Shown in pieces: positions 22,506 through 50,449 of a stretch of DNA of 64,000 nt (position 1 is its first letter; each line of letters opens with the position of its first letter). Position numbers and translations under genes: made by a program. The notes under the pieces were generated by a model, which saw only the letters and a program-made list of their open reading frames with translations, made no database searches and was not told the DNA's origin. The DNA lies in IMG/VR virus record IMGVR_UViG_3300020202_000070, positions 1 through 64,000 of that record; one strand, given 5' to 3'. Origin of the DNA: a virus.

Positions 22506-23996
22506 TCACTTCCTCGCCGGGTGTTTGCCGTTCCACAGCCGCACGGCCAGCCGCCGGGCGTACTCCAGCGCGTCGGGGCCGTCGTCGAAATCGGCCACCG
22601 GGAACTCCTGGAGTTGGCGCACCAGCATACGCGTTCCGGGCGTCGCGCGGAAGCGGATGTTCTTGCGGGTGACGTCGGCCGAGAGCCGGCGGATGCGCAC
22701 CTCCTTCGGCACGTTGCCGGTGAGCATCTTGTACATCGGCAGGGCGAAGCCGGCGGCCCGCGTCTGCCGCACGAACTCGTCGGCGAGCAGTTCCTGGAAC
22801 TGGTCGCTCTCGCACCCGAAGCCCTCGAGGTCGAGGCCCGTCTCCTCCTGCACCCGCCGGGCGAACTCGATGCCGTCGGTCACGATCCGCGGCGTCGGCC
22901 GGCGGGCGAGGTCCGCCTCCACCCACAGCCCGCCGGCGCGGTCGCGGGCCAGGGCCACGAGCGCCGAGTAGTCGCCGTGGGCGGCATCCTTGCCCTTCGA
23001 CGGGTCGAGCGCGATCACGAGGAGCTGGAGGTCATCGGCCGGCGGCCAGTCGTCGAACCAGATCGAGTTGGGGAAGCACGCCGCGTCCCACTCGGTGCCG
23101 CCCTCGGCGCGCGGATCCTGCTGGTCGAGGGCGTAGAAGTCGCGCGGCTCGAGCTTGCGCCTCTGCTCCCACTCCTCGGCCGTGCGGAACCACGGCCAGA
23201 GCGACTCGCCGGGCAGCCGCCAGTCCTCGGGGTGCGGGGCGTCGGTGGCGAGGGCCGGCAGGGTGAGCACGTCGAACGGCTCGCTCTCGCCGGCGGCGAC
23301 CTTGCGCTTCAGCCGGCCGATCAGGTCGTCCTCGTGCCAGCGGGTCGCGGTGATGAGGATACCGGCCCCTTTGGCCTGCCGCGTGTGGAAGACGGACGTG
23401 TACCACCGCCACACCCGCTCGCGGTGCGCGGGGGAGTTCGCCTCCTCGCGGTCCTTGCAGTAGTCGTCGATGACGCCGTGGGTGAAGCCGCGGCCGGACA
23501 GGCCGCCGCCGATGCCGACCGCCTTGAAGCTGCCGCCGCCGGCGACGTCGAACAGGTCCGCCCGGTCGCGGTCCCGCCTGCCGAGGGTGAGGCCGGCGGC
23601 CGGGAACACCTCGCGGTAGCGGTCGCCGTCGAGGATCGTCCGCACGTCGCGGCTCATCTCGTTGGCCAGGTCCGCCGTGTGACAGGCCAGGACGACGCGG
23701 GCCTTCGGCACCTTGCCGAACAGGTACGCCGGCAGCCGGCGCGAGGTCGCCTCGCTCTTGCCGTGCCGGGGCGGCATCTCGACGATGACGCGCTTGCGCC
23801 GGCCGCGGGCGAAGTCGTCGATGTAGCGGTACAAGAGCTCGTGGTGCTTCCACCAGTCGTAGTCGGCCGGGGCGGTGAACTTGGCGAACGAGTACAGGTG
23901 CTCGCGCGAGCGGCGGACGGCCCGCTCGTGCAGCACCGCCCGCAGCGCGAGCTTAGACGCCCTGGAGGCGTCGGATTTCGGCGTCGAGGTCGTCAT
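22506..23996 (-). CDS. terL: terminase large subunit
   Basis: A 496-residue ATPase-nuclease that cuts and pumps phage DNA into the head. Walker A is MPPRHGKS at residues 74-81, the Walker B region GVIDDYCKD lies near residue 180, and the coupling motif is ITATRWHEDD. The nuclease domain has LDPSKGKDAAHGDYS near residue 335 and DFDDGPDALEYARR near the end, giving the acidic metal site. Length is normal. The small subunit overlaps its start by 44 bases. Confidence 0.92.
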   Translation of the reverse strand: MTTSTPKSDASRASKLALRAVLHERAVRRSREHLYSFAKFTAPADYDWWKHHELLYRYIDDFARGRRKRVIVEMPPRHGKSEATSRRLPAYLFGKVPKARVVLACHTADLANEMSRDVRTILDGDRYREVFPAAGLTLGRRDRDRADLFDVAGGGSFKAVGIGGGLSGRGFTHGVIDDYCKDREEANSPAHRERVWRWYTSVFHTRQAKGAGILITATRWHEDDLIGRLKRKVAAGESEPFDVLTLPALATDAPHPEDWRLPGESLWPWFRTAEEWEQRRKLEPRDFYALDQQDPRAEGGTEWDAACFPNSIWFDDWPPADDLQLLVIALDPSKGKDAAHGDYSALVALARDRAGGLWVEADLARRPTPRIVTDGIEFARRVQEETGLDLEGFGCESDQFQELLADEFVRQTRAAGFALPMYKMLTGNVPKEVRIRRLSADVTRKNIRFRATPGTRMLVRQLQEFPVADFDDGPDALEYARRLAVRLWNGKHPARK

Positions 23997-24441
23997 CGGT
24001 CGCGTCGGCGTACTGGATGGGGCCGCCGTTCTTGCCGGTGTGCTCGTGCTGCTGCTTCTCCACGTACCCGCGATCCTTGCCGAGCGTCTTCAAGATGAGC
24101 GTCACCGCCCACCCCTCGCCGGCCAAGACCGCGCGGTCGAGCGAACTCTCGGCGTTGTCCAGGCGCGTCTCGCGGGCGTCCTTGACCACGGCCTTCAGCT
24201 CGTCGTGGGCCTCGACGTAGCCCCAGACGGAGCCGCGGGTCACGCCGAAGGAGCGGGCCACCGCGGCGAGGTTGCCGGCGTACTTCGGGATCGCCTCGCG
24301 CAGCGCCGCGACGGACAGGGGGCGGACCTGAACCGGGGCCGGGGGGCGCGCTGGTTTGTCCGGTTCGGCCGCCGGCGCCGGCGGAGCTTTCTTCGCCGCG
24401 GCCGGCCGCTTCGCGACGGGCTTCTTACGCTTCGCGCTCAC
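23953..24441 (-). CDS. terS: terminase small subunit
   Basis: A 162-residue protein. After a Lys/Ala/Pro-rich N-terminus, residues 48-80 form a helix-turn-helix (AAVARSFGVTRGSVWGYVE), followed by a helical oligomerisation part and a motif LGKDRGYVEKQQHEHTG common in small terminases. It should recognise the packaging site. It overlaps terL and is overlapped by the methyltransferase gene. Confidence 0.8.
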   Translation of the reverse strand: MSAKRKKPVAKRPAAAKKAPPAPAAEPDKPARPPAPVQVRPLSVAALREAIPKYAGNLAAVARSFGVTRGSVWGYVEAHDELKAVVKDARETRLDNAESSLDRAVLAGEGWAVTLILKTLGKDRGYVEKQQHEHTGKNGGPIQYADATDDDLDAEIRRLQGV

Positions 24442-25666
24442 AGGACAGGCCCTCGGCCTCGGCTCGGCGCAGGATGGTATCCGCCCATCGACAATCCAGT
24501 TCGCAGCCGTACACGGTTCGGTTCAGCCGGTGTCCCGCGATCAGCGTGGTGCCGCTGCCGAGGAACGGGTCGTACACGACGTCGCCCTCGGCGCCGTGGT
24601 TGCGGATCGGCCGGGCCATGCACTCGATCGGCTTCTGGGTGCCGTGGTCGCTGTCGAAGGAGTCGTCCTTCTTCGGGATCTTCCACAGCGACGTCTGGCT
24701 CCGGTCGCCGCACCAGCGGGCCGTCGAGCCCTTCCGCACGGCGTACCAACACGGCTCGTGCTGCCAGTGGTAGTGGCCGCGGCTGATCACGTGGCCGTCC
24801 TTCGCCCACACGACCTGCAGCCGGATCTCGAACCCGGCCGCCTCGAGCGACGCCTGCACGCTGCTGGCATGCCGACCGGCATGCCAGCAGTACACCACGT
24901 CGCCGGGGAAGAGCTTCCACGCGTCGGTCCAGTCGGCGCGTTCGTCGTTGGCGACTCGGCCCAAACGCCGCTCGGCGTTTGGGCCGAGTGCGTCCTGCCG
25001 CCACTCCGGGTCATACTCCACGCCGTACGGCGGGTCCGTCACCATCAGGAACGGCTTCGCGCCCGCGAACAGCCGCGCCACGTTCCCCTTCACCGTGCAG
25101 TCGCCGACCAGGAGCCGGTGCTTCCCGCCGATCACCCACAGCTCGCCCGGCTTCGTGCGCGTCGGCCCCTCCTCCGGCGTCGCGTCGAAGTCGTCGCCCC
25201 CGCCGCCGGCCGTCGCCCCTTCCGGCGCAATACCCGCGGCCGTGGCGAGCGACTCGAGCAGTTCGTTGATGGGGCCGCTGTCGGTGCTGACGCCCGCCAG
25301 GAGCGACGCCAGGGCCGCGGAATCGGCCTCGGCCAAAGCCCCGATCGGATCGAGTGTCGCGAGGATGAGGCGCTCCTGCTCCTCGGTCCAGCTCCCGATC
25401 ACGACCGGCACCGGTGCGTCGCTCTTGGCCGCGAGCTTTTTCCGGGCGTGACCGTCCACGAGCCGGCCCGTCGCTTCATTGAGAAGCAGCACGCCGGCCC
25501 AGCCGACCTCGGCGATCACGTCCGCCAGGGCGTCGAGCTGCTTCTGCGGATGCGTCTTCCAGTTCGCGGGGTTGTCGGCCAGCTCCGAGGGCCTGCGGTA
25601 TTCGAGCCGCAAGGGCTGAGGGGCCGGTTTCTTCGCCGCACGCTTCGCTTGCTTCGCCTTCGCCAT
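24425..25666 (-). CDS. ParB-like domain / DNA adenine or N4-cytosine methyltransferase
   Basis: A 413-residue fusion. Residues 15-110 are a ParB-like domain (PQKQLDALADVIAEVGW, then GRLVDGHARKKLA). Residues 170-410 are a beta-class amino-methyltransferase with motif IV DPPYG and motif I DPFLGSGTTLIAG. Such enzymes often protect phage DNA from host restriction and are encoded next to terminases. Two perfect inverted repeats lie inside the methyltransferase part. Confidence 0.85.
   Translation of the reverse strand: MAKAKQAKRAAKKPAPQPLRLEYRRPSELADNPANWKTHPQKQLDALADVIAEVGWAGVLLLNEATGRLVDGHARKKLAAKSDAPVPVVIGSWTEEQERLILATLDPIGALAEADSAALASLLAGVSTDSGPINELLESLATAAGIAPEGATAGGGGDDFDATPEEGPTRTKPGELWVIGGKHRLLVGDCTVKGNVARLFAGAKPFLMVTDPPYGVEYDPEWRQDALGPNAERRLGRVANDERADWTDAWKLFPGDVVYCWHAGRHASSVQASLEAAGFEIRLQVVWAKDGHVISRGHYHWQHEPCWYAVRKGSTARWCGDRSQTSLWKIPKKDDSFDSDHGTQKPIECMARPIRNHGAEGDVVYDPFLGSGTTLIAGHRLNRTVYGCELDCRWADTILRRAEAEGLSCEREA
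24861..24890. repeat. perfect inverted repeat in methyltransferase gene
   Basis: 14-bp arms (CTGCTGGCATGCCG and its complement) separated by only AC. It lies within the segment coding for WHAGRHASS. Confidence 0.85.
24954..24989. repeat. second perfect inverted repeat in methyltransferase gene
   Basis: 17-bp arms (ACTCGGCCCAAACGCCG and its complement) separated by only CT. It codes for part of GPNAERRLG. Confidence 0.85.
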
Positions 25667-30563: not shown

Positions 30564-33347
30564 TCACTTCTTCGCGGCGGCCTTCTTGCCGGCCGGCTTG
30601 CCGTTGGCCGCGGCCCGGTCGGCTTCGGGCCGGAAGTCGATGAGGGCGTCGCCGGCCTTGAGCACGACGTCTTCGGGCGTGCCGAGGTCGCGGAGCACGT
30701 CGTAGACGGTGGCGTTCTCGCGACCCCGCTTGTCGCGCAGGTGGGCGAGCTGGTCGTCGATGTCCGCGACGGTCGCCGGGGCCGGGGAGAACTTGGTGTC
30801 GAGGTGCGCGGCCGCCTTCGCGGGGAAGTTCGGCACCGCGGCGAGCGGGGTGTAGACGCCGTCGGTCGCCGGCTTGGCGGCGCGGTCGGGTTCCTTCGTG
30901 GTCAGCTTCCGCTCCTCGCTCGCCGGGCCGAGCACGTACTCCTGCTTGCCGACCCGGACCCGCAGCCCGAAGTACGCGTTGGCCCGCTCCTCGTCGGTCA
31001 TGGTCGGCTTGAACTGCGGCTTGAGCGACCGCGTGCGGTCGGGGAACTTCTCCTTGAACCGCGTCGGCTGGTAGAGCGGCGCGAAGTCCATGCCCGAATG
31101 CCCGTACTGCATCGAGCCGCCGGTGCTGACGTAGGGCGTCCCGTCGAGGGTGATGGGCCTGACCGATACCGGCTCCTTGAGCTTGTCGGTAAGCTTCTCC
31201 AGCGGCAGGCGGGCCTTCTCGAAGTCGGCCAGCTCGACGCCGAGGTCGCCGATGTACTCGCCCTCGAAGGCGGCGATGGGCACGCACGCGCTACAGAGGT
31301 CTTCCTCGTCGTTGACCCACTCGCACGGCATCCCGATCTTGGCGACGCACTTCGCGCAGTTGTCGTCGGTGCAGCCGCACACCCGGCAGCGGCGCACCTC
31401 GACGCACGCCGGCCCGTCGGCCGCCTTCGCGGCTTCGGCCTTCGCGACCTTCTCCTCGGCCGACTCGCCGCCGGAGAGCACGCGCCGGGCCTGCTCCCGG
31501 AGGGTGTCCCAATCCAGCTCGGCGAATGCCAGGAGCGCCTTGCCGGTGGTGCGGGTGGGGCCGTCGAACTGTAACTCCATCGTCGTCGCCAGTTCGACCA
31601 TGAGGCCGACCATCTGCGACGGCTTCATCCCGGCGAGGGCCGCGTCGATCCGCTCGCCGATGGCCGACCGCTTGCCGACCCGGTCGCCGAACCGCTCCTC
31701 CATGAGTTGCGAGCAGGCTTCGCCGTGTTGCATCACCGCGTCGTAGCAGTACGCCCGCAGCGCCAGTTCGAGAGCACCGCGGATCGGCCCCTCCTCGTGG
31801 GCGTCTTCGTGCTCGTCCAGGGCCGAGCACTGGTCCTCCGTGTACTCGCGGAGGACGGTCGCCGCGAGCTTGGTCGCCTTCTCGTCCACCTCCCACTCGC
31901 CGACGGTGACCGGCTTGCCGTCCTTGCCCTTCGCGCCGGCGGGTGCCTTCTCGGTTCGCGCCGCCGGCCTCTCGCCCTTCGGCCGCTCCGGTTTCTTGAG
32001 CGTCCCGTTGTCCCGCAGCGCCTTTCGCAGCTCGCCCGTCTTCGCGACGAGGCGGAGCTTGTGCTTGTGGTCGAGCACCGCGTACACGTCCACTGCCGCC
32101 GAACTGACGTCCGCGGTGCCGAGCAGGTGGAGCAGAACCTCCTCCCGCTTCTTGGAGCCGCCGAAGTTCTCGGCCAGCTCCGACAGGCCCGCCGGCTGCT
32201 TGACGTCGCACCAGCCCCGCGGCGGGCTCGTCTCGGAATACGGCGGCCACGCGAATTCTTCTGGGGGCGGTAGCGCCCCCTTCACCGTTCCCTTCTTCAG
32301 TTCGCGCGCGTCGTGCGCCGCGACCTTCTGCCGGTAGCAGTCCGGGTCGAGGCACACGTCGGCCCGCGTCCCCTCCGCGGTCGCCTCGGCGTCGTTGCCG
32401 GCGCGCTTCGGGCACGCCTCGCAGCTTCCGGCTTCGGGGACGAGGTCGAGCGCCTTGCGGTCGAAGGGGGCGCCCTTCAATTCGACGGTGAAGTGGTTGC
32501 GGATCAGGTCTTTGGCGTCGCGGTAGGAGAGCGGGTCGAGGTGGTCGCGGGTCAGGTTCGGGCGGTCCGGCGTGCCGACGAGGTGCTCCGGGTTCAGCAC
32601 GCCCTGGAGCACGCACGCCGCCGCGACCTTCCGCGCCTCCTCGCCGGGCACGCGGGCCACCACCTCCGCCGTCGCCCGCGGCAGCACGCCGGCGTCGAGG
32701 GCCGGCATCACCCACGGCGGCAGCTTCGCCAGCCGCAAAACGCTCCGCACCTGCCCGACCGACTCCGCACCCACGAGGGCGGCGAGCGCCTTGTCGTCGG
32801 GCAGGCCGGCGCGCACCTGGACGTAACCCGCGACCAGCTCCGACACCGACAGCGGCCGGCTCTGCTCGCGGCTGACGAGCATTCGCTCCCGCACCTTCTC
32901 GTCGGAGAGCGGCCGGATGATCACCTGGACCTTCTCGCAGGCGTGCGCCTCCTCGGGGTAGTGCTCGCAGATGTAGTGCAGGGCGCGCAAGCGCCGCTCG
33001 CCGTCGGTCAGTTGGAAGTGATCGACGCCCTCCCACCGCCGGCCCTTGTCGTCCCAGACCGGGGCCTCGTCTGTGCCGACGGGCCGCACCTCGAGAGGCT
33101 GCTGCAGCCGGTCGGCGCGAATCGACTCCGCCAGCCCGGCGATGTCGGCGTCGTCGAAGCGGCGGCGCAGGTTGAACGGGCAGACGCGGATCGACGCGAG
33201 CGCCACGTCGGCGCCGCTGTCCGGGCCGGAGGTGGCCGGCACGCCCGCGGAGACGGGCGGCCCGGCCGGGGTGCGGGCGTTCGCACCGGGCTTCGGCTTG
33301 GCGGCGGACTTGGCTTTGGGCTTCGCGGTCCTGGTCGCGGTCGGCAT
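30564..33347 (-). CDS. large ParB-like protein with cysteine cluster
   Basis: A 927-residue protein. Residues 48-220 are a ParB N-terminal domain (ASIRVCPFNLRRRFDD, LTDGERRLRALHY and the helix-turn-helix part LSVSELVAGYVQVR). A Cys-rich region near residue 320 (SCEACPKR and VCLDPDCYRQK) and another near 655 (CRVCGCTDDNCAKC) probably bind zinc. This layout resembles the long ParB-like proteins of plasmids and phages with a replication or partition role. The N-terminal 40 residues carry a palindrome-encoded GANART. Confidence 0.7.
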   Translation of the reverse strand: MPTATRTAKPKAKSAAKPKPGANARTPAGPPVSAGVPATSGPDSGADVALASIRVCPFNLRRRFDDADIAGLAESIRADRLQQPLEVRPVGTDEAPVWDDKGRRWEGVDHFQLTDGERRLRALHYICEHYPEEAHACEKVQVIIRPLSDEKVRERMLVSREQSRPLSVSELVAGYVQVRAGLPDDKALAALVGAESVGQVRSVLRLAKLPPWVMPALDAGVLPRATAEVVARVPGEEARKVAAACVLQGVLNPEHLVGTPDRPNLTRDHLDPLSYRDAKDLIRNHFTVELKGAPFDRKALDLVPEAGSCEACPKRAGNDAEATAEGTRADVCLDPDCYRQKVAAHDARELKKGTVKGALPPPEEFAWPPYSETSPPRGWCDVKQPAGLSELAENFGGSKKREEVLLHLLGTADVSSAAVDVYAVLDHKHKLRLVAKTGELRKALRDNGTLKKPERPKGERPAARTEKAPAGAKGKDGKPVTVGEWEVDEKATKLAATVLREYTEDQCSALDEHEDAHEEGPIRGALELALRAYCYDAVMQHGEACSQLMEERFGDRVGKRSAIGERIDAALAGMKPSQMVGLMVELATTMELQFDGPTRTTGKALLAFAELDWDTLREQARRVLSGGESAEEKVAKAEAAKAADGPACVEVRRCRVCGCTDDNCAKCVAKIGMPCEWVNDEEDLCSACVPIAAFEGEYIGDLGVELADFEKARLPLEKLTDKLKEPVSVRPITLDGTPYVSTGGSMQYGHSGMDFAPLYQPTRFKEKFPDRTRSLKPQFKPTMTDEERANAYFGLRVRVGKQEYVLGPASEERKLTTKEPDRAAKPATDGVYTPLAAVPNFPAKAAAHLDTKFSPAPATVADIDDQLAHLRDKRGRENATVYDVLRDLGTPEDVVLKAGDALIDFRPEADRAAANGKPAGKKAAAKK
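33270..33287. repeat. dispersed 18-bp palindrome copy
   Basis: GGTGCGGGCGTTCGCACC, translated as GANART near the start of the ParB-like protein. Confidence 0.75.
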
Positions 33348-33348
33348 G

Positions 33349-33879
33349 TCAGGTCGCTCCGGCTGGAGGGGGGAACGGTTGCGGTTTCACACCGTCGGGG
33401 ACGCGGTGTTTGCCGCGGGCCAGGGGGTGCTTCGGGCAGCCGTCGGCGGTAAGTCCCAGGTGCTCGACGCACGCCGTCGAGCCGATCAGCTTCCGCACGG
33501 CGCGGGCGCGCTCGGCCCACTTCGGGTGAGGCCACTTCGAGGCCACGCCGCCCCAGGCCGCGACGACCGTCCGGCCGGCGCACTGTCCCGCGATGTGGTA
33601 GTCGTTGTCCGGCCCGATCGGGTCGGCCGAGCGCCGCAGCTCCGAGGGGTCGGTGGCCCGGAGAGCGAACAGGTTGACCACCACGAGCCGGCCGTAGCCC
33701 CAGGCGTCCGCGAACGCCACGCACCGGCGGATGGTCGGGTCGTCGGCCCGGTGGTCGGCGGTCGAGGGGTTGAGCATCACGAACGCGACCGCGCCCCGGT
33801 CCGGGTTCCACGTCCGGGTGAGGAGGTAGCGGTACAGGCCGCAGGGCGAGAGCACGGCGTCGGCTTCGAGGTAGGTCAC
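33349..33879 (-). CDS. DUF1643 family protein
   Basis: A 176-residue protein from GTG 33879, in a GTGA overlap with the small membrane gene. It carries the DUF1643 pattern: YLLTRTW, then VMLNPSTADHRADDPTIRRCVAFA, split here as VMLNPSTAD and DDPTIRRC, then VVVNLFALRATDP. The family is common in phages and islands and has no proven function. Confidence 0.85.
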   Translation of the reverse strand: MTYLEADAVLSPCGLYRYLLTRTWNPDRGAVAFVMLNPSTADHRADDPTIRRCVAFADAWGYGRLVVVNLFALRATDPSELRRSADPIGPDNDYHIAGQCAGRTVVAAWGGVASKWPHPKWAERARAVRKLIGSTACVEHLGLTADGCPKHPLARGKHRVPDGVKPQPFPPPAGAT

Positions 33880-33986
33880 AGTTCCGGCCCCCACCGCCAC
33901 CAGGCGTAGACGATAAAGGCGAAGGCCGCAATCGCCGTGCAGGCGACGGCCGCTTCTGGCCAGTTCATCTCGGCGAACAGCGTCAC
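33876..33986 (-). CDS. 36-residue membrane peptide
   Basis: A small gene from GTG 33986, in GTGA overlaps on both sides. Residues 13-28 (AAVACTAIAAFAFIVYA) span a membrane. Holin-like or regulatory; unproven. Confidence 0.5.
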   Translation of the reverse strand: MTLFAEMNWPEAAVACTAIAAFAFIVYAWWRWGPEL

Positions 33987-38307: not shown

Positions 38308-38568
38308 TCAGTTCGCCTCCGGGCTCTGCCCCAGCCAGCTCACCAGCTCCTTCGCCTGCTCGGCGGTCATCGCCGGCAGCCGGCCCGTCGGGGCGCAGCC
38401 CTGGCACACCGGCCGCAGGAGGCCGTCGGCGACGTGCCTGGCGGTCGCGGGCGAGGCGATCACCTTCACCCGGCAGCAGGAGCAGCGGAGCGTCTTCGAG
38501 CCGGGCGGGGGCGGCATGTCGGCCGGAGCGTCCTTCACGCGGACGCAGAGCACCGGGTGTGCGTCCAT
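38308..38568 (-). CDS. small zinc-finger protein
   Basis: An 86-residue protein from ATG 38568, sharing one base with the exonuclease stop (TGATG). Zinc site from CSCCRVKV and VCQGCAPTG. Coupling to the exonuclease suggests a recombination helper. Confidence 0.55.
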   Translation of the reverse strand: MDAHPVLCVRVKDAPADMPPPPGSKTLRCSCCRVKVIASPATARHVADGLLRPVCQGCAPTGRLPAMTAEQAKELVSWLGQSPEAN

Positions 38569-39311
38569 CAGATCACCTCCGCCGCGAACCGCTCGTCGGC
38601 CGCCGGAGCGGCCTTCGCCGCTTCCGCCGCGAGCGCCTCGCGGGCTTCGAGCACCTCGAACCAGAACCGCGCCGCCTCGGTGTAGAGCCACGCCTGCTGG
38701 TCCGGGTCGGCCGCGACCGGCACCACCGCCAGCCAGTCGGCCGGCGCCTCGGGCCGCGACCGCTCCGGCAGCGCCCGCCACTCCTCCCACGCGACCGCGC
38801 CCGCCGGCGTGAAGCGTTTCGAGGGGTTGAACGTGGCGAAGTCGGCGCGACTCAGGCCGCACACCAGGAGCTGCCACTGGACCTGCGCCGCGTAGTAGTC
38901 GGGCACCACGCCCGCGAGCGCCGCGGAATGCACCTCCCAGCTCGGGCACTTCAGTTCGAGCAACCAGTCGAGCCGCTCGCCGGGCAGCACCGCGCCGTTC
39001 GTACACAGCCCATCCAGGCTGACGCGCGCCCACGGGCAACCCAGCATCTCGACGCAGCACGGCGGGGCCGGGAACCGCGTGCGGAGCGTGTACAGGTGGC
39101 GGGCGTGCGGCTCCAGGACCGTGCCGCGGTACATCGCGCCGTTGACCGGTCGCTCCCACGCGCCGATCTTCTCGCGGAGCACGTTCGCGCGGGTCGCGTC
39201 CTCGAAGGGCGCGAGGCCGACGACGGCGGCGATGTCGCTGCCGCCGACCCCGGCTTGCCTCCAGGCGCGCCAAGCGTCGGTTCCCTGCGCGAGGTCGCGG
39301 ATGATGTTCAT
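38568..39311 (-). CDS. YqaJ/lambda-type recombination exonuclease
   Basis: A 247-residue nuclease of the PD-(D/E)xK class. It shows GGSDIAAVVG at residues 23-32, EPHAR near 67, the catalytic Asp of VSLDGL near 100, ELKCPSWEVH at 119-128 (Glu and Lys of the active site) and VPDYYAAQVQWQLLV near 138. It resects double-stranded ends for phage recombination. It is the gene immediately downstream of the CRISPR-like array on the leftward transcript, with only 38 bases between them. Confidence 0.88.
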   Translation of the reverse strand: MNIIRDLAQGTDAWRAWRQAGVGGSDIAAVVGLAPFEDATRANVLREKIGAWERPVNGAMYRGTVLEPHARHLYTLRTRFPAPPCCVEMLGCPWARVSLDGLCTNGAVLPGERLDWLLELKCPSWEVHSAALAGVVPDYYAAQVQWQLLVCGLSRADFATFNPSKRFTPAGAVAWEEWRALPERSRPEAPADWLAVVPVAADPDQQAWLYTEAARFWFEVLEAREALAAEAAKAAPAADERFAAEVI

Positions 39312-39349: not shown

Positions 39350-39824
39350 CCTGCACCTTCGCGATGTTCGGCCGCGAGGTTCAGGGCGGCGGACATCCGG
39401 TGGCGGCAGTTCGGACAGCACCTGCACCTTCGCGATGTTCGGCCGCGAGGTTCAGGGCGGCGGACATCCGGTGGCGGCAGTTCGGACAGCACCTGCACCT
39501 TCGCGATGTTCGGCCGCGAGGTTCAGGCGGGGTAGGTGGCGAGCGCGTGCTCCTTCACCTGCTGCCTGCACCTTCGCGATGTTCGGCCGCGAGGTTCAGG
39601 GACAAGGACAACGAGCCGCGCGTCTGCCCCAAGTGCCTGCACCTTCGCGATGTTCGGCCGCGAGGTTCAGGCAGCCCGTGCAGGGCCCTGGTGCTCGCAG
39701 CCTGCTGCCCCCTGCACCTTCGCGATGTTCGGCCGCGAGGTTCAGGCATCCCAGACGAAATGGGAAAATGGCAACTGGAAGCCTTTGGCCTGCACCTTCG
39801 CGATGTTCGGCCGCGAGGTTCAGG
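39350..39824. CRISPR. CRISPR-like array, seven 36-bp repeats
   Basis: Seven identical 36-bp repeats start at 39350, 39421, 39492, 39565, 39636, 39711 and 39789. Spacers are 35, 35, 37, 35, 39 and 42 bp; the first two are identical and the others differ. Each repeat is nearly a full inverted repeat: CCTG/CAGG ends, ACCT/AGGT, then CGCG/CGCG around a 9-base loop (ATGTTCGGC), with one mismatch and one bulged T. No repeat is degenerate, so the leader end is unclear. If transcribed leftward with the TnpB/Cas12-like gene, the leader would lie at 39825-39972. Confidence 0.88.
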
Positions 39825-39972
39825 GGTCCGCGCCGGAAGCGCCCGCCCTGAAACGGTTTTGGGGACTTCTGGCGAGCGGCACCCGGCGGCCCGCGCCGGA
39901 CCTGACCCGCCCTCGGCTTTGCAGTAGCCGCAACATGCTGTGACCTCAGCAAGTAGGTTTACGCGAGAGGTA
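39825..39972 (-). promoter_or_regulatory. gap between effector gene and array, candidate leader
   Basis: 148 bp with no gene, somewhat less GC-rich than its surroundings. On the minus strand it runs from the effector stop to the first repeat. No convincing promoter, anti-repeat or terminator could be picked out by eye, so it may be a leader on a shared transcript. Confidence 0.35.
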
Positions 39973-41295
39973 CTACGCTTCGCTCTCGCCCGCATCCGCT
40001 TCGGACGCATCGTGTTGGAACGCTAAACCCTCCTCGTTGCACAGACACCGCAACCGCTCTCGCAGCGCGTGCCACGGCAGGCTCGGTACGAACGATCGCT
40101 CCGCGTCGCGGTAGACGAGTACCCCGCACCGCTGCCGCCGGGCGAACCCGACGACCGCCGCGGCGATCTGCTTCAGCTCCGAGTCGATCCGCCCGTGCTG
40201 CCGTTCGATGTGCGCCGCGGCCCCGCCCGCGACCATCCGGCGGCGCTTCCGGGCCGGCCACCGCTTCTCGTGCTTCATGTCGTTGCGGTAGCGAGCGAGC
40301 CAGCGGGTGTGACCGTACACGGCGCCGCGCACCTGATCGCCGGAGATGACGAACGGGTCGCGGTCGGGCACTTCGACGGTAATCAAGTTCTCGGCGCCGG
40401 TCGTGACCGTCGCGACGCGCTCGGTCTGTTGCGGCGCCGGGGTGCGCGGAAATCGCCCCGCGATGATCGCCTTGACCCCGACGACCCGGCCGCCGCGCGA
40501 GACGGGTACGAGCTTGAGGTCGGCGCCGCGGGCCGCGCCCGTCACGAGGGCGTCGAAGTCGCGCAACTGCCACTTGAGTTCGGGCGAGCGGTCCAGTTCC
40601 AGGAGATACCGCCCGCCGAGGAGCGGCACCGCGACGCGCGGGATGCGCCCGCCGGGGTCGTCGTGCCAGCCCGCCCACCAGTCGCCGGCGCGGATGGGGA
40701 AGGGGTACGGGTAGCCGAACACCATCGGCCGCGCCTTGCCCTGCCAGAGCACCGCCAGCCGGCCGAAGCTCTTGTGCCCCTTCCAGGCGTCCTCGACGGC
40801 CGTGAGGACCGTCAGCGCGCTGCCCGTCGCACCGTCCCACAGTTGCCGCCACGCCAGCGGCATCACCGACTGGTCGTTCCACAGGGAGTACAGCGTGCCG
40901 ACCTGGGGCGCCTTCGGGTCGGCGCCCTTGCGCTTGAGCCTGCGCTTGAATGTGCCGAACATGGCGGCCGGGTCGTACTTCGGCAGCGTTTCCATCTCCG
41001 GGGTGCGGCGCACGTCCCGGCGGGCCAGTTCGCGGATCGCCCAGTTGGCGAGGTCGGTCGCGGCCCGCCACGCCGGGTGGAAGTGCCGCAGGAACCCCTC
41101 GGTGAACTCCACATCGTCGCCCCGCGCGTCGAGCCGGCCGACCACCCGCGCCACCGGCAGCGAGATCGCCCGCACGCAGTAGTCCGCCGCCAGACAGGCT
41201 CCGCAGATGGGGCCGCCGTAATCCTTCCACCCGCGCGGCAGGCGATTGGAGACGACTTCGGCCGCACAGCGGGCGCAGGCGAACGCACGGCTCAT
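39973..41295 (-). CDS. compact TnpB/Cas12-like protein, probably nuclease-dead
   Basis: A 440-residue protein. Residues 7-34 hold an added zinc finger (CARC then CGAC). Residues 40-280 fit the helical and wedge regions of TnpB/Cas12. Residues 294-430 align with the TnpB RuvC core: VTTGAENLITV stands where (I/V)G(I/V)D(V/L)G is expected, DPFVISGDQV where PFIINGxxL is usual, then a basic bridge-like helix (RWPARKRRRM), GVLVYRD at RuvC-II and FVPSLPWHALRERL. The RuvC-I Asp is missing, the RuvC-II Glu is unclear, and the chain ends before the zinc ribbon and RuvC-III Asp. It likely binds guide RNA and DNA without cutting. Confidence 0.72.
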   Translation of the reverse strand: MSRAFACARCAAEVVSNRLPRGWKDYGGPICGACLAADYCVRAISLPVARVVGRLDARGDDVEFTEGFLRHFHPAWRAATDLANWAIRELARRDVRRTPEMETLPKYDPAAMFGTFKRRLKRKGADPKAPQVGTLYSLWNDQSVMPLAWRQLWDGATGSALTVLTAVEDAWKGHKSFGRLAVLWQGKARPMVFGYPYPFPIRAGDWWAGWHDDPGGRIPRVAVPLLGGRYLLELDRSPELKWQLRDFDALVTGAARGADLKLVPVSRGGRVVGVKAIIAGRFPRTPAPQQTERVATVTTGAENLITVEVPDRDPFVISGDQVRGAVYGHTRWLARYRNDMKHEKRWPARKRRRMVAGGAAAHIERQHGRIDSELKQIAAAVVGFARRQRCGVLVYRDAERSFVPSLPWHALRERLRCLCNEEGLAFQHDASEADAGESEA

Positions 41296-41858
41296 CGCGG
41301 CACCTCCACACGGCTCTCCAGGTCCGCCGCCGCGTTCTTGAGCGCCGCCACCGCGGCCCGCGGGGCGCAGTGACCCGTGTAGTACGCCTGGCCCGTGCGG
41401 TCGAAGAGCACCAGGAAGAACATCGGGTCGGCGACGCCGCGGGCGGCCAGCGCGTCGAGCAGCACCGGGCGCAGCGCGTCGAGCAGCGCCTCGATCTCGG
41501 CCTGCGGGGTCGCTTCGAGGGGGCGCGGCCCGGGCGGTTCACTGCCGGCGAGTTGCACCGCCCGCTCGTGCCCGGCCTCCGCCTCGGCGAGGGTGTAGTA
41601 CCGCTGTTGAAAGTCCGCGTGCGGGCCGCCGAAGATCATCGTCTCGAAGAGAACGGGCCGACCGTCTTCGCGGGAGCTGTGGTCGATGCCGAGGAACACG
41701 GTGGAAACCGTGACGCCGCCGGGCAGCTCGGTCCGGCCGACGATCTGGCCGCCCTCGTGGAACGGACGGCGAGCCCCGGCCGATTCGATCCAGCTCGCCA
41801 TCTCCACGAGGTGCGACGGACGGAAGCTCCCGTCGCCGGTGGGAACGTAGTACCTCAT
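41292..41858 (-). CDS. small phage protein of unknown function
   Basis: A 188-residue protein from ATG 41858, overlapping the effector start by ATGA. It has the pattern STVFLGIDH then LFETMIFGGPHADFQQRYY, and AEAEAGHERAV, which recurs in small phage proteins of unknown role. The overlap makes co-translation with the effector likely. Confidence 0.6.
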   Translation of the reverse strand: MRYYVPTGDGSFRPSHLVEMASWIESAGARRPFHEGGQIVGRTELPGGVTVSTVFLGIDHSSREDGRPVLFETMIFGGPHADFQQRYYTLAEAEAGHERAVQLAGSEPPGPRPLEATPQAEIEALLDALRPVLLDALAARGVADPMFFLVLFDRTGQAYYTGHCAPRAAVAALKNAAADLESRVEVPR

Positions 41859-42046
41859 TCCGCCGCTCCTTCCCGCCGGCACACCCGGCAGCACAGCCTC
41901 ACGCCCGGCCGCAGCCCGGCCCGGTCGCCGCGGGCGGCCCGGCAGGCGTAGTGCCCGCAGCCGAGCTTGGCGATCACGAGCCGGCTGCCGGCCTTGTTGG
42001 TGATGAGCTTCTGGCCGGCGACGGGCCGGCGGGGTTTGCGCCTCAC
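41855..42046 (-). CDS. small zinc-binding protein
   Basis: A 63-residue protein from GTG 42046 in a GTGA overlap with the ATPase stop. Cys/His residues in GCGHYACRAARG and LCCRVCRREG suggest one zinc site. Unknown role. Confidence 0.5.
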   Translation of the reverse strand: MRRKPRRPVAGQKLITNKAGSRLVIAKLGCGHYACRAARGDRAGLRPGVRLCCRVCRREGAAE

Positions 42047-43515
42047 GTCGTCGCTCCTTCCTTCGCCGCCTTGTTCGCGGCCCGCTTGTCGCGCCGGGCC
42101 TGCTTCTCGTTCGCCACCTTCGTCAGCGCCTCGAACAGCTTGAGCGCCGCCGACGGCATCAGCCCCGGCACCTTCAGCGTGGGGCTGGGCACGAACCCGC
42201 AGTGCCTCGCGATCCCGCCGCCCTCGCACGGCCGCAGCTCGGCGTCGAGCTTGTCGTCGCGGACCTGAGTCCAGTCGAGGCCGGTGGCGTCGCCGAACAG
42301 GCCGACGATGCGCTTCACGATGTCGCCGCCGGCGAAGTTGGGTTTGGGCTGCGCCGCGGTGGCGCCGCTCGCGGACGCTTCGGTGCGCCGCTCGGCCGCG
42401 GGCATGGGCTTGGACTCAGCCTTCGCCGGCGTAGAGGTCGCCGCAGAACTTGCAGGCGCGGCGGTACTCGTAGCCGTGGACGGGGCAGAAGGGGTCGTGG
42501 CGGGAGGGTCCGCGCGCTGCTCACCCTCCCCGTCGAGCGGCGGGCCGTCGGCGCTCATGCGCTGGAGTTCGGCGAGCTTCGCCTGCGTCTCGGCGTCGGC
42601 CGCGGTCAGTGCCGCCTTGCGGGCGTCCTTCCGCTTGCCGAGCTGGTCGATCTGGAAGGCCGTGAGCCGGCCCGCCTTCGCGTCGGCGTTCACCTTCTCC
42701 ATGACGCCCCTGAGCGCCTCGATCGAGGCCGCGGCGTCGATGGCCCTGCCGTGGGCGTCGCCGAGTTCCCCCTGCGAGAGCGGGGCCGCGACCGGCTCGG
42801 CGGACAGCCACCAGTCGAACAGCGGCCGCCAGAACTCCGGGCCGGGTTTGGTGCAGCTCTTGTTGTCCATCGCCGAGCAGCCGCGGACCTTCTCGACGTG
42901 CGCCTCGTGGCCGGCGTCGAGGCGCAGCACGCAGTCGAACTCGTACTCGGTGTTGTCGCGCTGGTCGGTCTTCATGCCGACCTTCTTGATCTGCGCCCGG
43001 CCGTTGCCGTCCACCGTCCGCTCGTACTCGCTCTTCACCCGCATCGTGACGATACAGTGCGCCCGCAGGTCGGTGAGCGTGGTGAGCATGGTCCGCTGTT
43101 CGGGGGTGACCTTCGCCCACCCGCCGAACTTGTCGCCGCGGTTGGCGCGGGCGTACTCGTCCACCTTCTCCATCGCCCCGTGCCAGGCGTGGGAGAGGGA
43201 ATCGAAGATGATGAGGTCGAAGCCCTGGCCGACGAGGTACTCGTAGCACTCGGCGTAGCCGGCCGGGTTCTGCTTGTCGTGCGGGATGGCGCACGTCTCG
43301 TACTGCCAGGTCTCGCCGTCGATGTGGACGCCGTCGTAGAGGCCCGCCGACTCGTTCTCGCTGTCGGCCACCACGATCCGCTTGCCGATCCCCGCGCGCC
43401 GCATGGCGAACGCGAGGCGCAGGGCCGTGTACGTCTTGCCCGAGCCGGAGAGGCCCTCCAGGCTGATCTTGAGCGGGCGGCGCTGGCGCTTCGCCTTCTT
43501 GACCTCGAAGGACAT
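42043..43515 (-). CDS. RecA-fold ATPase (phage AAA/Sak-like)
   Basis: A 490-residue protein from ATG 43515. Walker A is EGLSGSGKT at residues 20-28, then VVADSENESAGLYD, and Walker B is LIIFDSLSHAW near residue 100. The core resembles phage RecA-like single-strand annealing or recombination ATPases often found beside a YqaJ exonuclease. The C-terminal 250 residues are low-complexity Ala/Pro/Thr-rich sequence with a small domain at the end. Starting further upstream would read through the tRNA-like gene. Confidence 0.75.
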   Translation of the reverse strand: MSFEVKKAKRQRRPLKISLEGLSGSGKTYTALRLAFAMRRAGIGKRIVVADSENESAGLYDGVHIDGETWQYETCAIPHDKQNPAGYAECYEYLVGQGFDLIIFDSLSHAWHGAMEKVDEYARANRGDKFGGWAKVTPEQRTMLTTLTDLRAHCIVTMRVKSEYERTVDGNGRAQIKKVGMKTDQRDNTEYEFDCVLRLDAGHEAHVEKVRGCSAMDNKSCTKPGPEFWRPLFDWWLSAEPVAAPLSQGELGDAHGRAIDAAASIEALRGVMEKVNADAKAGRLTAFQIDQLGKRKDARKAALTAADAETQAKLAELQRMSADGPPLDGEGEQRADPPATTPSAPSTATSTAAPASSAATSTPAKAESKPMPAAERRTEASASGATAAQPKPNFAGGDIVKRIVGLFGDATGLDWTQVRDDKLDAELRPCEGGGIARHCGFVPSPTLKVPGLMPSAALKLFEALTKVANEKQARRDKRAANKAAKEGATT

Positions 43516-43568
43516 GGTCAGACTCCGAAACTGAGGAACGGGAACCGGAACACGCAGGAACAACCCAG

Positions 43569-43641
43569 AACGACCGCCGAGAATTGAACTCGGCCCTCCG
43601 CCCTGCTGGCAGGCGGCGCTCTTCCGCTGAGCTACGGTCGC
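43569..43641 (-). tRNA. tRNA-like gene with enlarged anticodon arm
   Basis: The minus strand folds as a cloverleaf: acceptor GCGACCG/CGGTCGT, D arm GCTC-AGCGGAA-GAGC, T arm CCGAG-TTCAATT-CTCGG. The anticodon arm is 19 rather than 17 bases: stem CCGCC/GGCGG around the 9-base loop TGCCAGCAG, or a 6-bp stem around GCCAGCA. A GCC (Gly) or CAG (Leu) anticodon is possible, but the usual T at position 33 is absent in the second reading. No encoded CCA. Confidence 0.6.
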
Positions 43642-43825
43642 AAGTTGCCGGATCGCGCTTTTGCACCCTCGCGTCGCGCCCGTCCGGCCGGGCGGCCGCC
43701 CCACGAGGGCGGCGGTCACACTCTGATCGAGCCCCGTTCCGTCTCACCCCCGCACGGGACCACGCGGGTCGTTGGCGGCCACGTCCGCCGGTCCCATCGC
43801 CGGCATTCGGCCGCCGGTGATCGCG

Positions 43826-49144: not shown

Positions 49145-50449
49145 ATGGCCCACGTCCACCGGCAGACCTACACCAAGCCGATTCCCGCCGGCGCCGAGCG
49201 CGTCACGGTGAAGAAAACGCCGTGCGTCCGCTGGCGGGGCCGAACCGGCGAGTGGGTCGTGGCCGAAGTGATCCCGGAGAAGCCCGGCCGGTGCCGCTGC
49301 CAGTCGGCCAAGTGGTACGTCACCTACTACGACCACGCCGCCGGCCGCGAGCGAACCGTGCCCGGCTACACCGACCGGGCCGCCACCGACGCCCTGATGG
49401 TGAGTCTCGTGAGGACCGCCCAGCGGGTCGACGCCGGACTCCTGCCGCCGGAGGCCCAGCGCGAGCGCCTGACGATGGCGGAGCTGCTCGACCGCTGGCA
49501 GCGGTTCATCCGGCACAAGGGCGCCACGGAGGCCGGCGCGCACCGGCGGCGGCAGCGGGCCGGGGCGGTGGCCGAGGGCGTCGGGGCCGACCGCCCCGCG
49601 CAGCTCACGCCCTCGGCGGTGCTGGAGTGGGCCGGCGCGGCGAAGGAGGAGCACGACTGGAGCGACGGCTCGGTGATCGCCTACCTGTCCGCGGTCAAGG
49701 GGTTCACCAAGTGGCTCGCGCAGGTCGAGCGGCACGAGCCGGTCGACCACCTCTCCGCCCTGCCTTGCGGCTACGAGCCGGCCGAGGTCCGCCGCGTCCG
49801 CCGGGCGCTCTCCCCCGAACAACTGGAGGAACTGCTCGCCGCCGCCCGCGCCAGCCCGGACACCGTCCGCGGCCTCACCGGCCCCGAGCGCCACGCGCTC
49901 TACCTGACCGCCGCCTCGACCGGGCTGCGGGCGGTCGAGCTGTCTCGCCTCACCGCCGCTGACCTCGACGCGGCCGCCGGCGCGGTCACCGTCCGCCGGC
50001 CGGCCAAGGCGCGCGGCCGGCGCACCGACGTCGTGCCGCTCGACCCCGAGGTGATCCGCCTCGTGCTCGCGGTCTGCCCGGCGGAGGGCCACCTCTGGCC
50101 GGCGCGGGAGCTGAAGACGACGCACTGGTACTTGCAGGGCGCCGAGATGATCCGCCGCGACCTGGCCGCCGCCGGCATCCCCTACCGCGACGCCGAGGGC
50201 CGCGTGTTCGACTTTCACTCGCTGCGCGGGCAGTTCGCGACGGATTTGGACCGCGCCGGCGTCACGCTCCAGCGGGCGCAGAAGCTCATGCGCCACGCCG
50301 ACCCGGCCATGACCGCCAAGCACTACACGCGCCCGGAACGCGAGGAACTGGCGAAGGAGGCAGCCAAGCTCGGCCGCGGCAAGCTAGCGCGACAGGCGCG
50401 GCCGGCGCTTGGGGTGGCGCTTGGGAGGAGACCCCGTAAGAGGCCGTGA
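49145..50449 (+). CDS. int: tyrosine recombinase (phage integrase)
   Basis: A 434-residue recombinase. The N-terminal 110 residues form a DNA-binding part (RWRGRTGEWV and a Cys-containing segment). A SAM-like core domain follows, then the catalytic domain: TGLRAVELSRL (Arg near residue 260), HSLRGQF (His-x-x-Arg near 358-361), LMRHADPAMTAKHYTRPE (His and the nucleophile Tyr near 394). It would integrate the element into the host. A palindromic terminator lies about 150 bases downstream; an attP core is expected nearby. Confidence 0.92.
   Translation: MAHVHRQTYTKPIPAGAERVTVKKTPCVRWRGRTGEWVVAEVIPEKPGRCRCQSAKWYVTYYDHAAGRERTVPGYTDRAATDALMVSLVRTAQRVDAGLLPPEAQRERLTMAELLDRWQRFIRHKGATEAGAHRRRQRAGAVAEGVGADRPAQLTPSAVLEWAGAAKEEHDWSDGSVIAYLSAVKGFTKWLAQVERHEPVDHLSALPCGYEPAEVRRVRRALSPEQLEELLAAARASPDTVRGLTGPERHALYLTAASTGLRAVELSRLTAADLDAAAGAVTVRRPAKARGRRTDVVPLDPEVIRLVLAVCPAEGHLWPARELKTTHWYLQGAEMIRRDLAAAGIPYRDAEGRVFDFHSLRGQFATDLDRAGVTLQRAQKLMRHADPAMTAKHYTRPEREELAKEAAKLGRGKLARQARPALGVALGRRPRKRP

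What the first reader, a model, noticed from the sequence alone, without database searches (positions are those of the whole stretch)
39350..41295. Phage-encoded minimal CRISPR-like locus: array plus one TnpB/Cas12-like gene
Seen: seven identical 36-bp repeats with 35-42-bp spacers lie 148 bases from a 440-residue protein with a TnpB/Cas12 RuvC-type core, on what would be one leftward transcript. No cas1, cas2, cas4 or other cas gene is visible in 64 kb. Known: compact type V-U/V-F/V-M systems can consist of just an effector and an array, and some phages carry mini-arrays. Inference: the phage uses RNA-guided binding against rival mobile elements or host genes.
Basis: partly seen in the sequence, partly recalled or inferred. 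Interest (0 to 1): 0.96.

Follow-up and report, generated by a model that had tools for sequence, protein, structure and literature searches.

The report
Phage CRISPR array beside dead TnpB-like protein
A phage that probably infects Gemmata-like planctomycetes carries a small CRISPR array next to one gene for a TnpB/Cas12-type protein that has lost its DNA-cutting site, so it most likely uses guide RNAs to bind and block DNA rather than cut it.

Summary
In detail: seven identical 36-bp repeats (39350-39824) with six spacers of 35-42 nt (two identical) lie 148 bases from a 440-codon gene (39973-41295, minus) in a temperate-phage record related to Gemmata phages. Standard profile scans find nothing for the protein, but remote methods show a TnpB/Cas12f relative: tblastn and hhalign matches, the only hit among 595 open frames of the window to an HMM of 80 viral TnpBs, and an AlphaFold model (guided by 39 TnpBs) whose top PDB matches are Cas12f, then TnpB. 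The RuvC-I Asp is Thr, the Glu motif is replaced, and the protein stops before the zinc-finger (TNB) domain and RuvC-III. It also has an N-terminal Cys4 motif that the aligned TnpBs lack. No Cas1, Cas2, Cas4 or TnpA profile match in the record. The repeat was not found in IMG/VR (22-mer) or sampled planctomycete genomes, which speaks against borrowing a host system. No protospacer was found. Best reading: a minimal, cleavage-dead type V-like system acting by RNA-guided DNA binding, like Cas12m or an array-fed TldR. The pairing of array and protein rests on one locus. New variant of a known kind.

The parts
39350..39824 (-). CRISPR-like array: 7 identical 36-bp repeats, 6 spacers (35-42 nt; spacers 1 and 2 identical). 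Strand given as that of the adjacent gene; direction of transcription is inferred
39386..39420 (.). spacer 1 (identical to spacer 2 at 39457-39491)
39528..39564 (.). spacer 3
39601..39635 (.). spacer 4
39672..39710 (.). spacer 5
39747..39788 (.). spacer 6, 50% G+C in a window of 72% G+C (0.6% of window 42-mers are as low), so probably foreign DNA
39825..39972 (-). 148-bp stretch between gene and array (possible leader or guide-RNA scaffold); no Rfam match at E up to 1, no consensus promoter, no significant fold when folded with the first repeat and part of a spacer
39973..41295 (-). 440-aa TnpB/Cas12f-like protein, catalytic positions lost and C-terminal part missing, with an extra N-terminal Cys4 motif (C7, C10, C31, C34)
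41292..41894 (-). 200-aa protein without Pfam or PHROG match; its stop overlaps the ATG of the TnpB-like gene by 4 bp (probable operon partner)

Best explanation
A phage-borne, minimal type V-like CRISPR system. The array is transcribed leftwards together with, or just downstream of, the gene; the hairpin repeats of the pre-crRNA are recognised by the 440-aa TnpB/Cas12f-like protein; the complex binds DNA that matches a spacer. Because the catalytic residues and the TNB/RuvC-III part are absent it should not cut, and it acts as a roadblock to transcription or replication of rival mobile elements (or of chosen host genes). The phage has no adaptation genes that could be found, so it does not acquire spacers by itself. 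Shown: array, gene, remote homology, loss of catalytic motifs, no Cas1/Cas2/Cas4 profile match. Inferred: pairing of array and protein, RNA processing, DNA binding, silencing, targets.
For: Array is real with a structured repeat. The protein is a TnpB/Cas12f homologue: tblastn E 2e-3 to a phage TnpB (13), BLASTP over residues 293-424, hhalign E 1.8e-5 at probability 78% against 10 TnpBs versus E 0.48-0.94 for three other window proteins, the only one of 595 open frames of the window hit by an HMM of 80 viral TnpBs (E 0.013, 9.5 bits; the protein alone scores 10.0 bits against at most 2.3 in 2000 shuffles; 88), blastp E 4e-6 to L067 of the 80. The alignment with 39 TnpBs runs from the N-terminal helix to the strand before the TNB domain. 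AlphaFold with those 39: mean pLDDT 80-96 per ten residues over 291-430, 65.7 overall; top PDB matches Cas12f E 8.4e-9, TnpB E 4.5e-5; VIA-align Z 15.5 for Cas12f (rmsd 7.8, 282 residues), 13.2 for TnpB (7.4, 302). Catalytic loss: RuvC-I Asp in 39 of 39 TnpBs, Thr298 here; the EE of EESYTS in 38 and 39 of 39, Ala430-Ser431 here; RuvC-III Asp in 39 of 39, beyond the end of the protein here. The frame is intact and coding-like (GC3 0.91, 24) and overlaps the preceding gene by 4 bp. Repeat not found in 95 Gemmataceae genomes, among BLAST matches in 95 and 392 planctomycete genomes, or as an exact 22-mer in IMG/VR (17). Dead type V effectors that silence by binding are described in PMC12669027, PMC11656645 and PMC10442227 (passages seen).
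Against: One locus only: no second phage with this gene or array was found, so the pairing has no comparative support. No protospacer found. Ready-made profiles miss the protein; the AlphaFold model was guided by TnpB rows, so its likeness to TnpB/Cas12 is partly built in, and without them the model is poor (mean pLDDT 37.6). 32 of the 43 strongly conserved TnpB columns that it covers are changed, a few conservatively, so guide-RNA binding may itself be altered or lost. No promoter-like site was found, though 0.1 was expected by chance. None of 80 IMG/VR TnpB loci shows an array of exact 20-mers in the flanks held (up to 3 kb a side, less at contig ends).
Confidence: 0.62

Rival explanations
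1. The array is a mini-array that feeds a host CRISPR system, and the TnpB-like gene beside it is unrelated.
For: Viral mini-arrays carry repeats identical to those of the host system (PMC11656645, passage).
Against: Repeat not found at up to 3 mismatches in 95 of 95 Gemmataceae genomes, nor among BLAST matches in 95 Gemmataceae and 392 planctomycete genomes (only the best 7 and 2 candidates per genome were scored). Seven repeats is large for a mini-array, which the review describes as one or two spacers. The true host is not known.
Confidence: 0.15
2. The protein works as a TldR-like repressor with a single guide RNA of its own (scaffold near its 3' end), and the array evolved from, or is independent of, that guide.
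For: TldRs are nuclease-dead TnpBs, one clade in temperate phages, that repress genes (PMC13418256, passages). This protein has lost its catalytic site and sits in a temperate phage (integrase).
Against: No significant RNA fold in the 148-bp gap plus first repeat (z -0.7) and no Rfam guide-RNA match there. The array supplies the obvious guides.
Confidence: 0.1
3. The gene is a decaying or repurposed TnpB with no RNA-guided role, and the array is a remnant.
For: Most conserved TnpB positions are changed (32 of 43 covered columns).
Against: Intact 440-codon frame with phage-typical codon use, 4-bp overlap with the preceding gene, added N-terminal Cys4 motif, seven repeats without a mismatch.
Confidence: 0.08
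4. The repeats are protein-binding sites (partition centromere, iterons or operator array) rather than CRISPR.
For: The repeat is an imperfect palindrome and the phage encodes a protein with a ParB N-terminal domain at 30564-33347.
Against: Spacers of similar length but unrelated sequence, one spacer-repeat unit duplicated exactly, one spacer of foreign base composition, and a TnpB/Cas12 relative beside it.
Confidence: 0.05

Closest known systems
Cas12m / type V-M CRISPR-Cas (Cas12m2)
   Same: Compact type V effector that binds and silences instead of cutting; on plasmids and some prophages (PMC10442227, PMC11656645; passages).
   Different: Cas12m2 has 596 residues with a TNB zinc finger and an His-Asp-Asp site; this protein has 440, lacks TNB and RuvC-III, and its structural matches rank Cas12f and TnpB above Cas12m2 (Z 15.5 and 13.2 against 9.9). 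No direct sequence comparison with Cas12m was made.
TldR (TnpB-like nuclease-dead repressors)
   Same: Nuclease-dead TnpB descendants, one clade in temperate phages, that act as RNA-guided DNA binders (PMC13418256, passages).
   Different: In the passages seen a TldR has one guide-RNA cassette beside the gene; here a seven-repeat array is beside it.
Phage TnpBs of the EESYTS clade (BE04, phage G, L051-L130)
   Same: Best sequence relatives found; same order from N-terminal helix to RuvC.
   Different: Catalytic motifs present in the 39 aligned; no exact-20-mer array in the flanks of 80 of 80 loci; no N-terminal Cys4 stretch in the 39 aligned.
Phage-encoded TnpB or type V-like genes beside arrays
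   Same: A landfill survey reports two viral TnpBs (401 and 433 aa) near CRISPR arrays, 114 of 450 array-bearing viral elements with a type V homologue, and short clades with weak or no detectable RuvC motifs (PMC12607003, passages).
   Different: The two TnpBs there have all three RuvC motifs; I could not compare its motif-poor proteins with this one.
Cas12b3 (inactivated V-B variant on a plasmid)
   Same: Inactivated Cas12 with a mini CRISPR array on a mobile element (PMC12669027, figure legend).
   Different: Cas12b lineage, different from TnpB/Cas12f.
TIGR-Tas
   Same: Often phage-borne array of interspersed repeats plus a single effector (PMC12045711, abstract and passages).
   Different: TIGR uses Nop-domain proteins and units of edge and loop repeats with short split spacers; here one 36-bp repeat per unit and 35-42 nt spacers.

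Membership tests
Type V CRISPR-Cas (unclassified, V-U-like) | CRISPR array with identical repeats and unique spacers | tested here: met
   7 identical repeats, 6 spacers of which 5 unique
Type V CRISPR-Cas (unclassified, V-U-like) | Effector homologous to TnpB/Cas12 with RuvC fold | tested here: met
   hhalign, HMM, blastp, alignment, model and fold search; the RuvC fold only up to the strand before the TNB insert
Type V CRISPR-Cas (unclassified, V-U-like) | Association of effector and array in more than one genome | tested here: inconclusive
   no second copy of gene or repeat found
Type V CRISPR-Cas (unclassified, V-U-like) | Protospacers in mobile elements | tested here: inconclusive
   none found; planctomycete phages are thinly sampled, spacers 3 and 5 were not scanned in IMG/VR
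Type V CRISPR-Cas (unclassified, V-U-like) | crRNA processing and RNA-guided DNA binding | not testable with these tools
   needs RNA sequencing and binding assays
Type V-M (Cas12m) | TNB zinc finger and third RuvC segment, as in Cas12m2 | tested here: not met
   the protein ends before them
Type V-M (Cas12m) | Sequence family Cas12m | tested here: inconclusive
   no PADLOC or NCBIfam match at E up to 10, but what these libraries hold for Cas12m was not checked; Cas12m2 appears in the fold list at Z 9.9
TldR | TnpB homologue with inactivated RuvC | tested here: met
   Thr298, Ala430-Ser431, no RuvC-III
TldR | Own guide RNA adjacent to the gene | tested here: inconclusive
   no Rfam match and no significant fold in the 148-bp gap; a family-specific scaffold could be missed
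Transposon-borne TnpB (IS200/IS605) | Intact catalytic site and TNB domain | tested here: not met
Transposon-borne TnpB (IS200/IS605) | TnpA (Y1 transposase) partner | tested here: not met
   no PF01797 match at E up to 1 in the record, control rings in 10 of 14 genomes; that many TnpBs lack TnpA is recalled
Host-dependent viral mini-array | Repeat identical to that of a host CRISPR system | tested here: inconclusive
   not in 95 Gemmataceae genomes at up to 3 mismatches nor among BLAST matches in 392 planctomycetes; the true host is not known
TIGR-Tas | Units with paired edge and loop repeats and short split spacers | tested here: not met
   one repeat per unit, spacers 35-42 nt
TIGR-Tas | Nop-domain protein | tested here: inconclusive
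   no Pfam family at E up to 1, but that scan also missed the TnpB relationship

The most novel reading that the evidence does not exclude
A lineage of phage TnpB that lost cutting altogether (catalytic residues plus the whole TNB/RuvC-III part), gained an N-terminal zinc-binding module, and independently acquired a multi-spacer CRISPR array: in effect an array-programmed TldR and one of the most reduced type V-like effectors, showing that TNB and the third RuvC segment are dispensable for RNA-guided silencing.
Probability: 0.35. Interest if true: 0.8.

Novelty: new variant of a known kind. Interest (0 to 1): 0.64.

Why it matters
Type V systems are thought to arise repeatedly when TnpB meets an array (about 50 inferred events, PMC12669027, passage). 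This locus would be a case where cutting was lost and the protein shortened while an array was kept, in a phage of the planctomycetes. It would tell which parts of a TnpB are needed for guided binding alone and give a very small natural DNA-binding effector.

Tried and rejected
Led nowhere: ready-made profile scans of the protein; close-relative scans of viral contigs and genome contigs with the protein; plasmids and phages beyond two TnpBs; protein search in 95 Gemmataceae (3 of 95, E 1.1e-4, 7.8e-4 and 5.1e-3) and 392 planctomycetes (1 of 392, E 9e-5). Of these four hits I looked at the frames of L011 and L014 by eye only and saw nothing TnpB-like; L012 and L013 were not opened; all were set aside as chance. 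Single-sequence AlphaFold was poor (mean pLDDT 37.6) and was not searched.

Spacer targets: none in the window and no match in GenBank phages, with 8 weak plasmid matches (E 0.01-0.6) that were set aside. Codon-degenerate patterns for parts of spacers 6, 4 and 2 had no exact match in IMG/VR; these demand the same peptide in one chosen frame, and spacers 3 and 5 were not scanned there. In 95 Gemmataceae genomes 54 had array matches at E up to 0.1, far more than the E-values promise, which shows how permissive they are in G+C-rich DNA; the best inside a spacer are spacer 4 (24 bases, 96%, E 0.0026) and spacer 2 (29 bases, 90%, E 0.003). In 392 planctomycetes 6 had matches at E up to 5e-4 and all six run across a spacer-repeat border. 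Only the best 7 and 2 candidates per genome were scored. In the loci held, spacer 2 (27 of 35 in L027) and spacer 4 (26 of 35 in L023) exceed five shuffles each (at most 24), but these loci were fetched because they matched the array. A single-copy coding stretch in L016 matches the repeat at 30 of 36 bases (shuffles at most 26); it has no array and was judged chance.

A frameshift as cause of the short protein was considered: the 148 bp before the array are too short for the missing TnpB end and no significant TnpB profile match lies there, though a CxxC occurs in another frame. An Rfam CRISPR-DR20 match inside the gene (24 bits, cut-off 42) was taken as chance. Families missing from the VIA list are not excluded; its own note warns that helical models can reach Z about 13 without kinship.

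Limits of controls: TnpBs L051-L130 were fetched by a pattern on the EESYTS-like motif and are the best 80 of 117, so conservation of that motif is by construction; the two Asp positions were not in the pattern. The 11 of 43 retained columns (5000 shuffles: mean 1.9, at most 9) come from an alignment fitted to the protein, so that comparison flatters it. The hhalign E-value is for one comparison, and the first row of that TnpB set was the tblastn hit itself.

Full report
What is there. The window is the first 64,000 bases of a 65,941-bp virus record. It carries terminase (22506-23996), portal (18271-21852) and integrase (49145-50449) matches and replication/recombination genes, so it is a temperate phage. 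Terminase relatives were found in four IMG/VR contigs (L006-L009, identities 82, 76, 63 and 30%) and one contig of a Gemmata MAG (L010, 56%), so the host is probably a Gemmata-like planctomycete; this is inference. The array (39350-39824) has seven identical 36-bp repeats and six spacers, two of them identical. The gene at 39973-41295 overlaps the stop of the preceding gene by four bases, so it is probably translated from the same message. Array and gene lie between a YqaJ-type exonuclease gene (38568-39311) and, two small genes further, an AAA_24/Sak4-like gene (42043-43719), that is, inside the phage's recombination block.

What the protein is. Ready-made profiles and phmmer against the PDB gave no TnpB/Cas12 match. 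tblastn against 50,697 phage records found two records, both the TnpB of Staphylococcus phages (E 2e-3 and 3e-3, residues 293-424); one of these has the Pfam domains OrfB_IS605 and Cas12f1-like_TNB. Against ten TnpBs hhalign gives E 1.8e-5 at probability 78%, while three other proteins of the window give 0.48-0.94. An HMM of 80 IMG/VR TnpBs hits one of the window's 595 open frames, this one, with E 0.013 (9.5 bits); the protein alone scores 10.0 bits and 2000 shuffles of it at most 2.3. Each test alone is modest; together they agree on the same region and register. The alignment with 39 TnpBs extends through the N-terminal helix, the Trp-Lys helix and RuvC to the strand before the TNB domain. 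AlphaFold on that alignment gives 80-96 per ten residues over 291-430 but poor values for 1-49, 182-216 and 224-250 (mean 65.7). Foldseek's first matches are Cas12f structures (best E 8.4e-9), then TnpB (4.5e-5), Fanzor, Cas12g, Cas12k and Cas12m2 (9.1e-4); VIA-align gives Cas12f 15.5, TnpB 13.2, Cas12m2 9.9 (rmsd 7.4-9.0 over 282-319 residues). The model leaned on TnpB rows and is poor without them, so this is consistent with, not independent of, the sequence result.

Why it should not cut. The RuvC-I Asp is present in 39 of 39 TnpBs; here it is Thr298. The EE of the EESYTS motif is present in 38 and 39 of 39; here Ala430-Ser431. The RuvC-III Asp is present in 39 of 39; here the protein has ended. 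That the Glu of this motif is catalytic in this clade is recalled, not tested. The missing end includes the TNB zinc-finger domain. It is not a simple frameshift: the next 148 bases are too short and show no significant TnpB match. At the N-terminus are four cysteines (7, 10, 31, 34), spaced like a zinc finger, in a stretch that the 39 TnpBs lack; zinc binding is inferred.

How it most likely works. Repeats form a hairpin in either orientation. Gene then array on one strand suggests one leftward transcript; no sigma-70-like promoter was found where 0.1 was expected by chance, which says little. The protein would bind the repeat hairpins, be guided by spacers, and block DNA. Cas12m silences without cutting and occurs on plasmids and in prophages (PMC10442227, PMC11656645; passages), RuvC inactivation in type V occurred several times (PMC12669027; passages), and phage TldRs repress genes (PMC13418256; passages). 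Cas1, Cas2 and Cas4 profiles find nothing in the record, while their controls ring in 10, 10 and 9 of 14 genomes, over the cut-off in 9, 7 and 8, so new spacers would have to come from elsewhere. One spacer has 50% G+C where the window has 72%, so it probably derives from other DNA.

What speaks against it. There is only one example. The gene was not found again in IMG/VR or GTDB contigs by exact peptide patterns, in 95 Gemmataceae or 392 other planctomycete genomes beyond weak hits, or in six related viral fragments and one MAG (an answer without a positive control); nor was the repeat. No target was found. Of 43 strongly conserved TnpB columns that it covers, 32 are changed, some conservatively, more than catalytic loss alone needs. 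None of 80 viral TnpB loci shows an array of exact 20-mers in the flanks held, so this TnpB clade does not usually go with arrays.

Rivals. A mini-array for a host system is made less likely by the absence of the repeat from sampled relatives of the presumed host, but the real host is unknown. A TldR with its own guide is not excluded; the 148-bp gap has no significant fold and no Rfam match. A decayed gene and a non-CRISPR binding-site array fit the details less well.

Novelty. Phage type V-like loci, dead type V effectors and dead TnpBs are all known. A landfill survey reports two viral TnpBs of similar size near arrays, but with all three RuvC motifs, and short protein clades with weak or no detectable RuvC motifs (PMC12607003, passages); the latter might include something like this and could not be compared. 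I did not find a paper describing a TnpB-like protein without the three catalytic sites and the TNB part beside an array in a planctomycete phage; this rests on seven searches of the open-access library and the passages read. Key papers were not held (TnpB/Cas12 classification) or not looked up (TldR discovery, Cas12m in Mol. Cell). I therefore call it a new variant of a known kind.

Noticed in passing
window 39386-39420 and 39457-39491: Two neighbouring spacer-repeat units are exact copies, at the end of the array farthest from the gene.
   Followed up: partly
window 38568-39311: YqaJ-type exonuclease (Pfam E 2e-19) directly beyond the array; part of the phage recombination block. The Cas4 profile finds nothing in the record.
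   Followed up: partly
window 39825-39972, minus strand, another frame: A CCGYCKAEGG stretch (one CxxC knuckle) just downstream of the gene's stop; no significant TnpB profile match, probably chance.
   Followed up: partly
window 43568-43641: tRNA-Leu (CAG) on the minus strand; it overlaps the 5' part of the predicted frame 42043-43719.
   Followed up: no
window 30564-33347 and 24425-25666: A 927-aa protein with ParB N-terminal domain, and a protein with both ParB-like and DNA-methyltransferase PHROG matches.
   Followed up: no
window 33349-33900: DUF1643 protein (Pfam E 4e-43).
   Followed up: no
L016:1502-1537: A single-copy coding stretch in a Gemmataceae genome matches the phage repeat at 30 of 36 bases.
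   Followed up: partly
fold search in BFVD, entry A0A1P8DIN8: Best structural match among viral models (E 1.2e-9, 16% identity, 467 aa) has no name in the tables; it could be a closer relative of the phage protein. Its sequence was not obtained.
   Followed up: no
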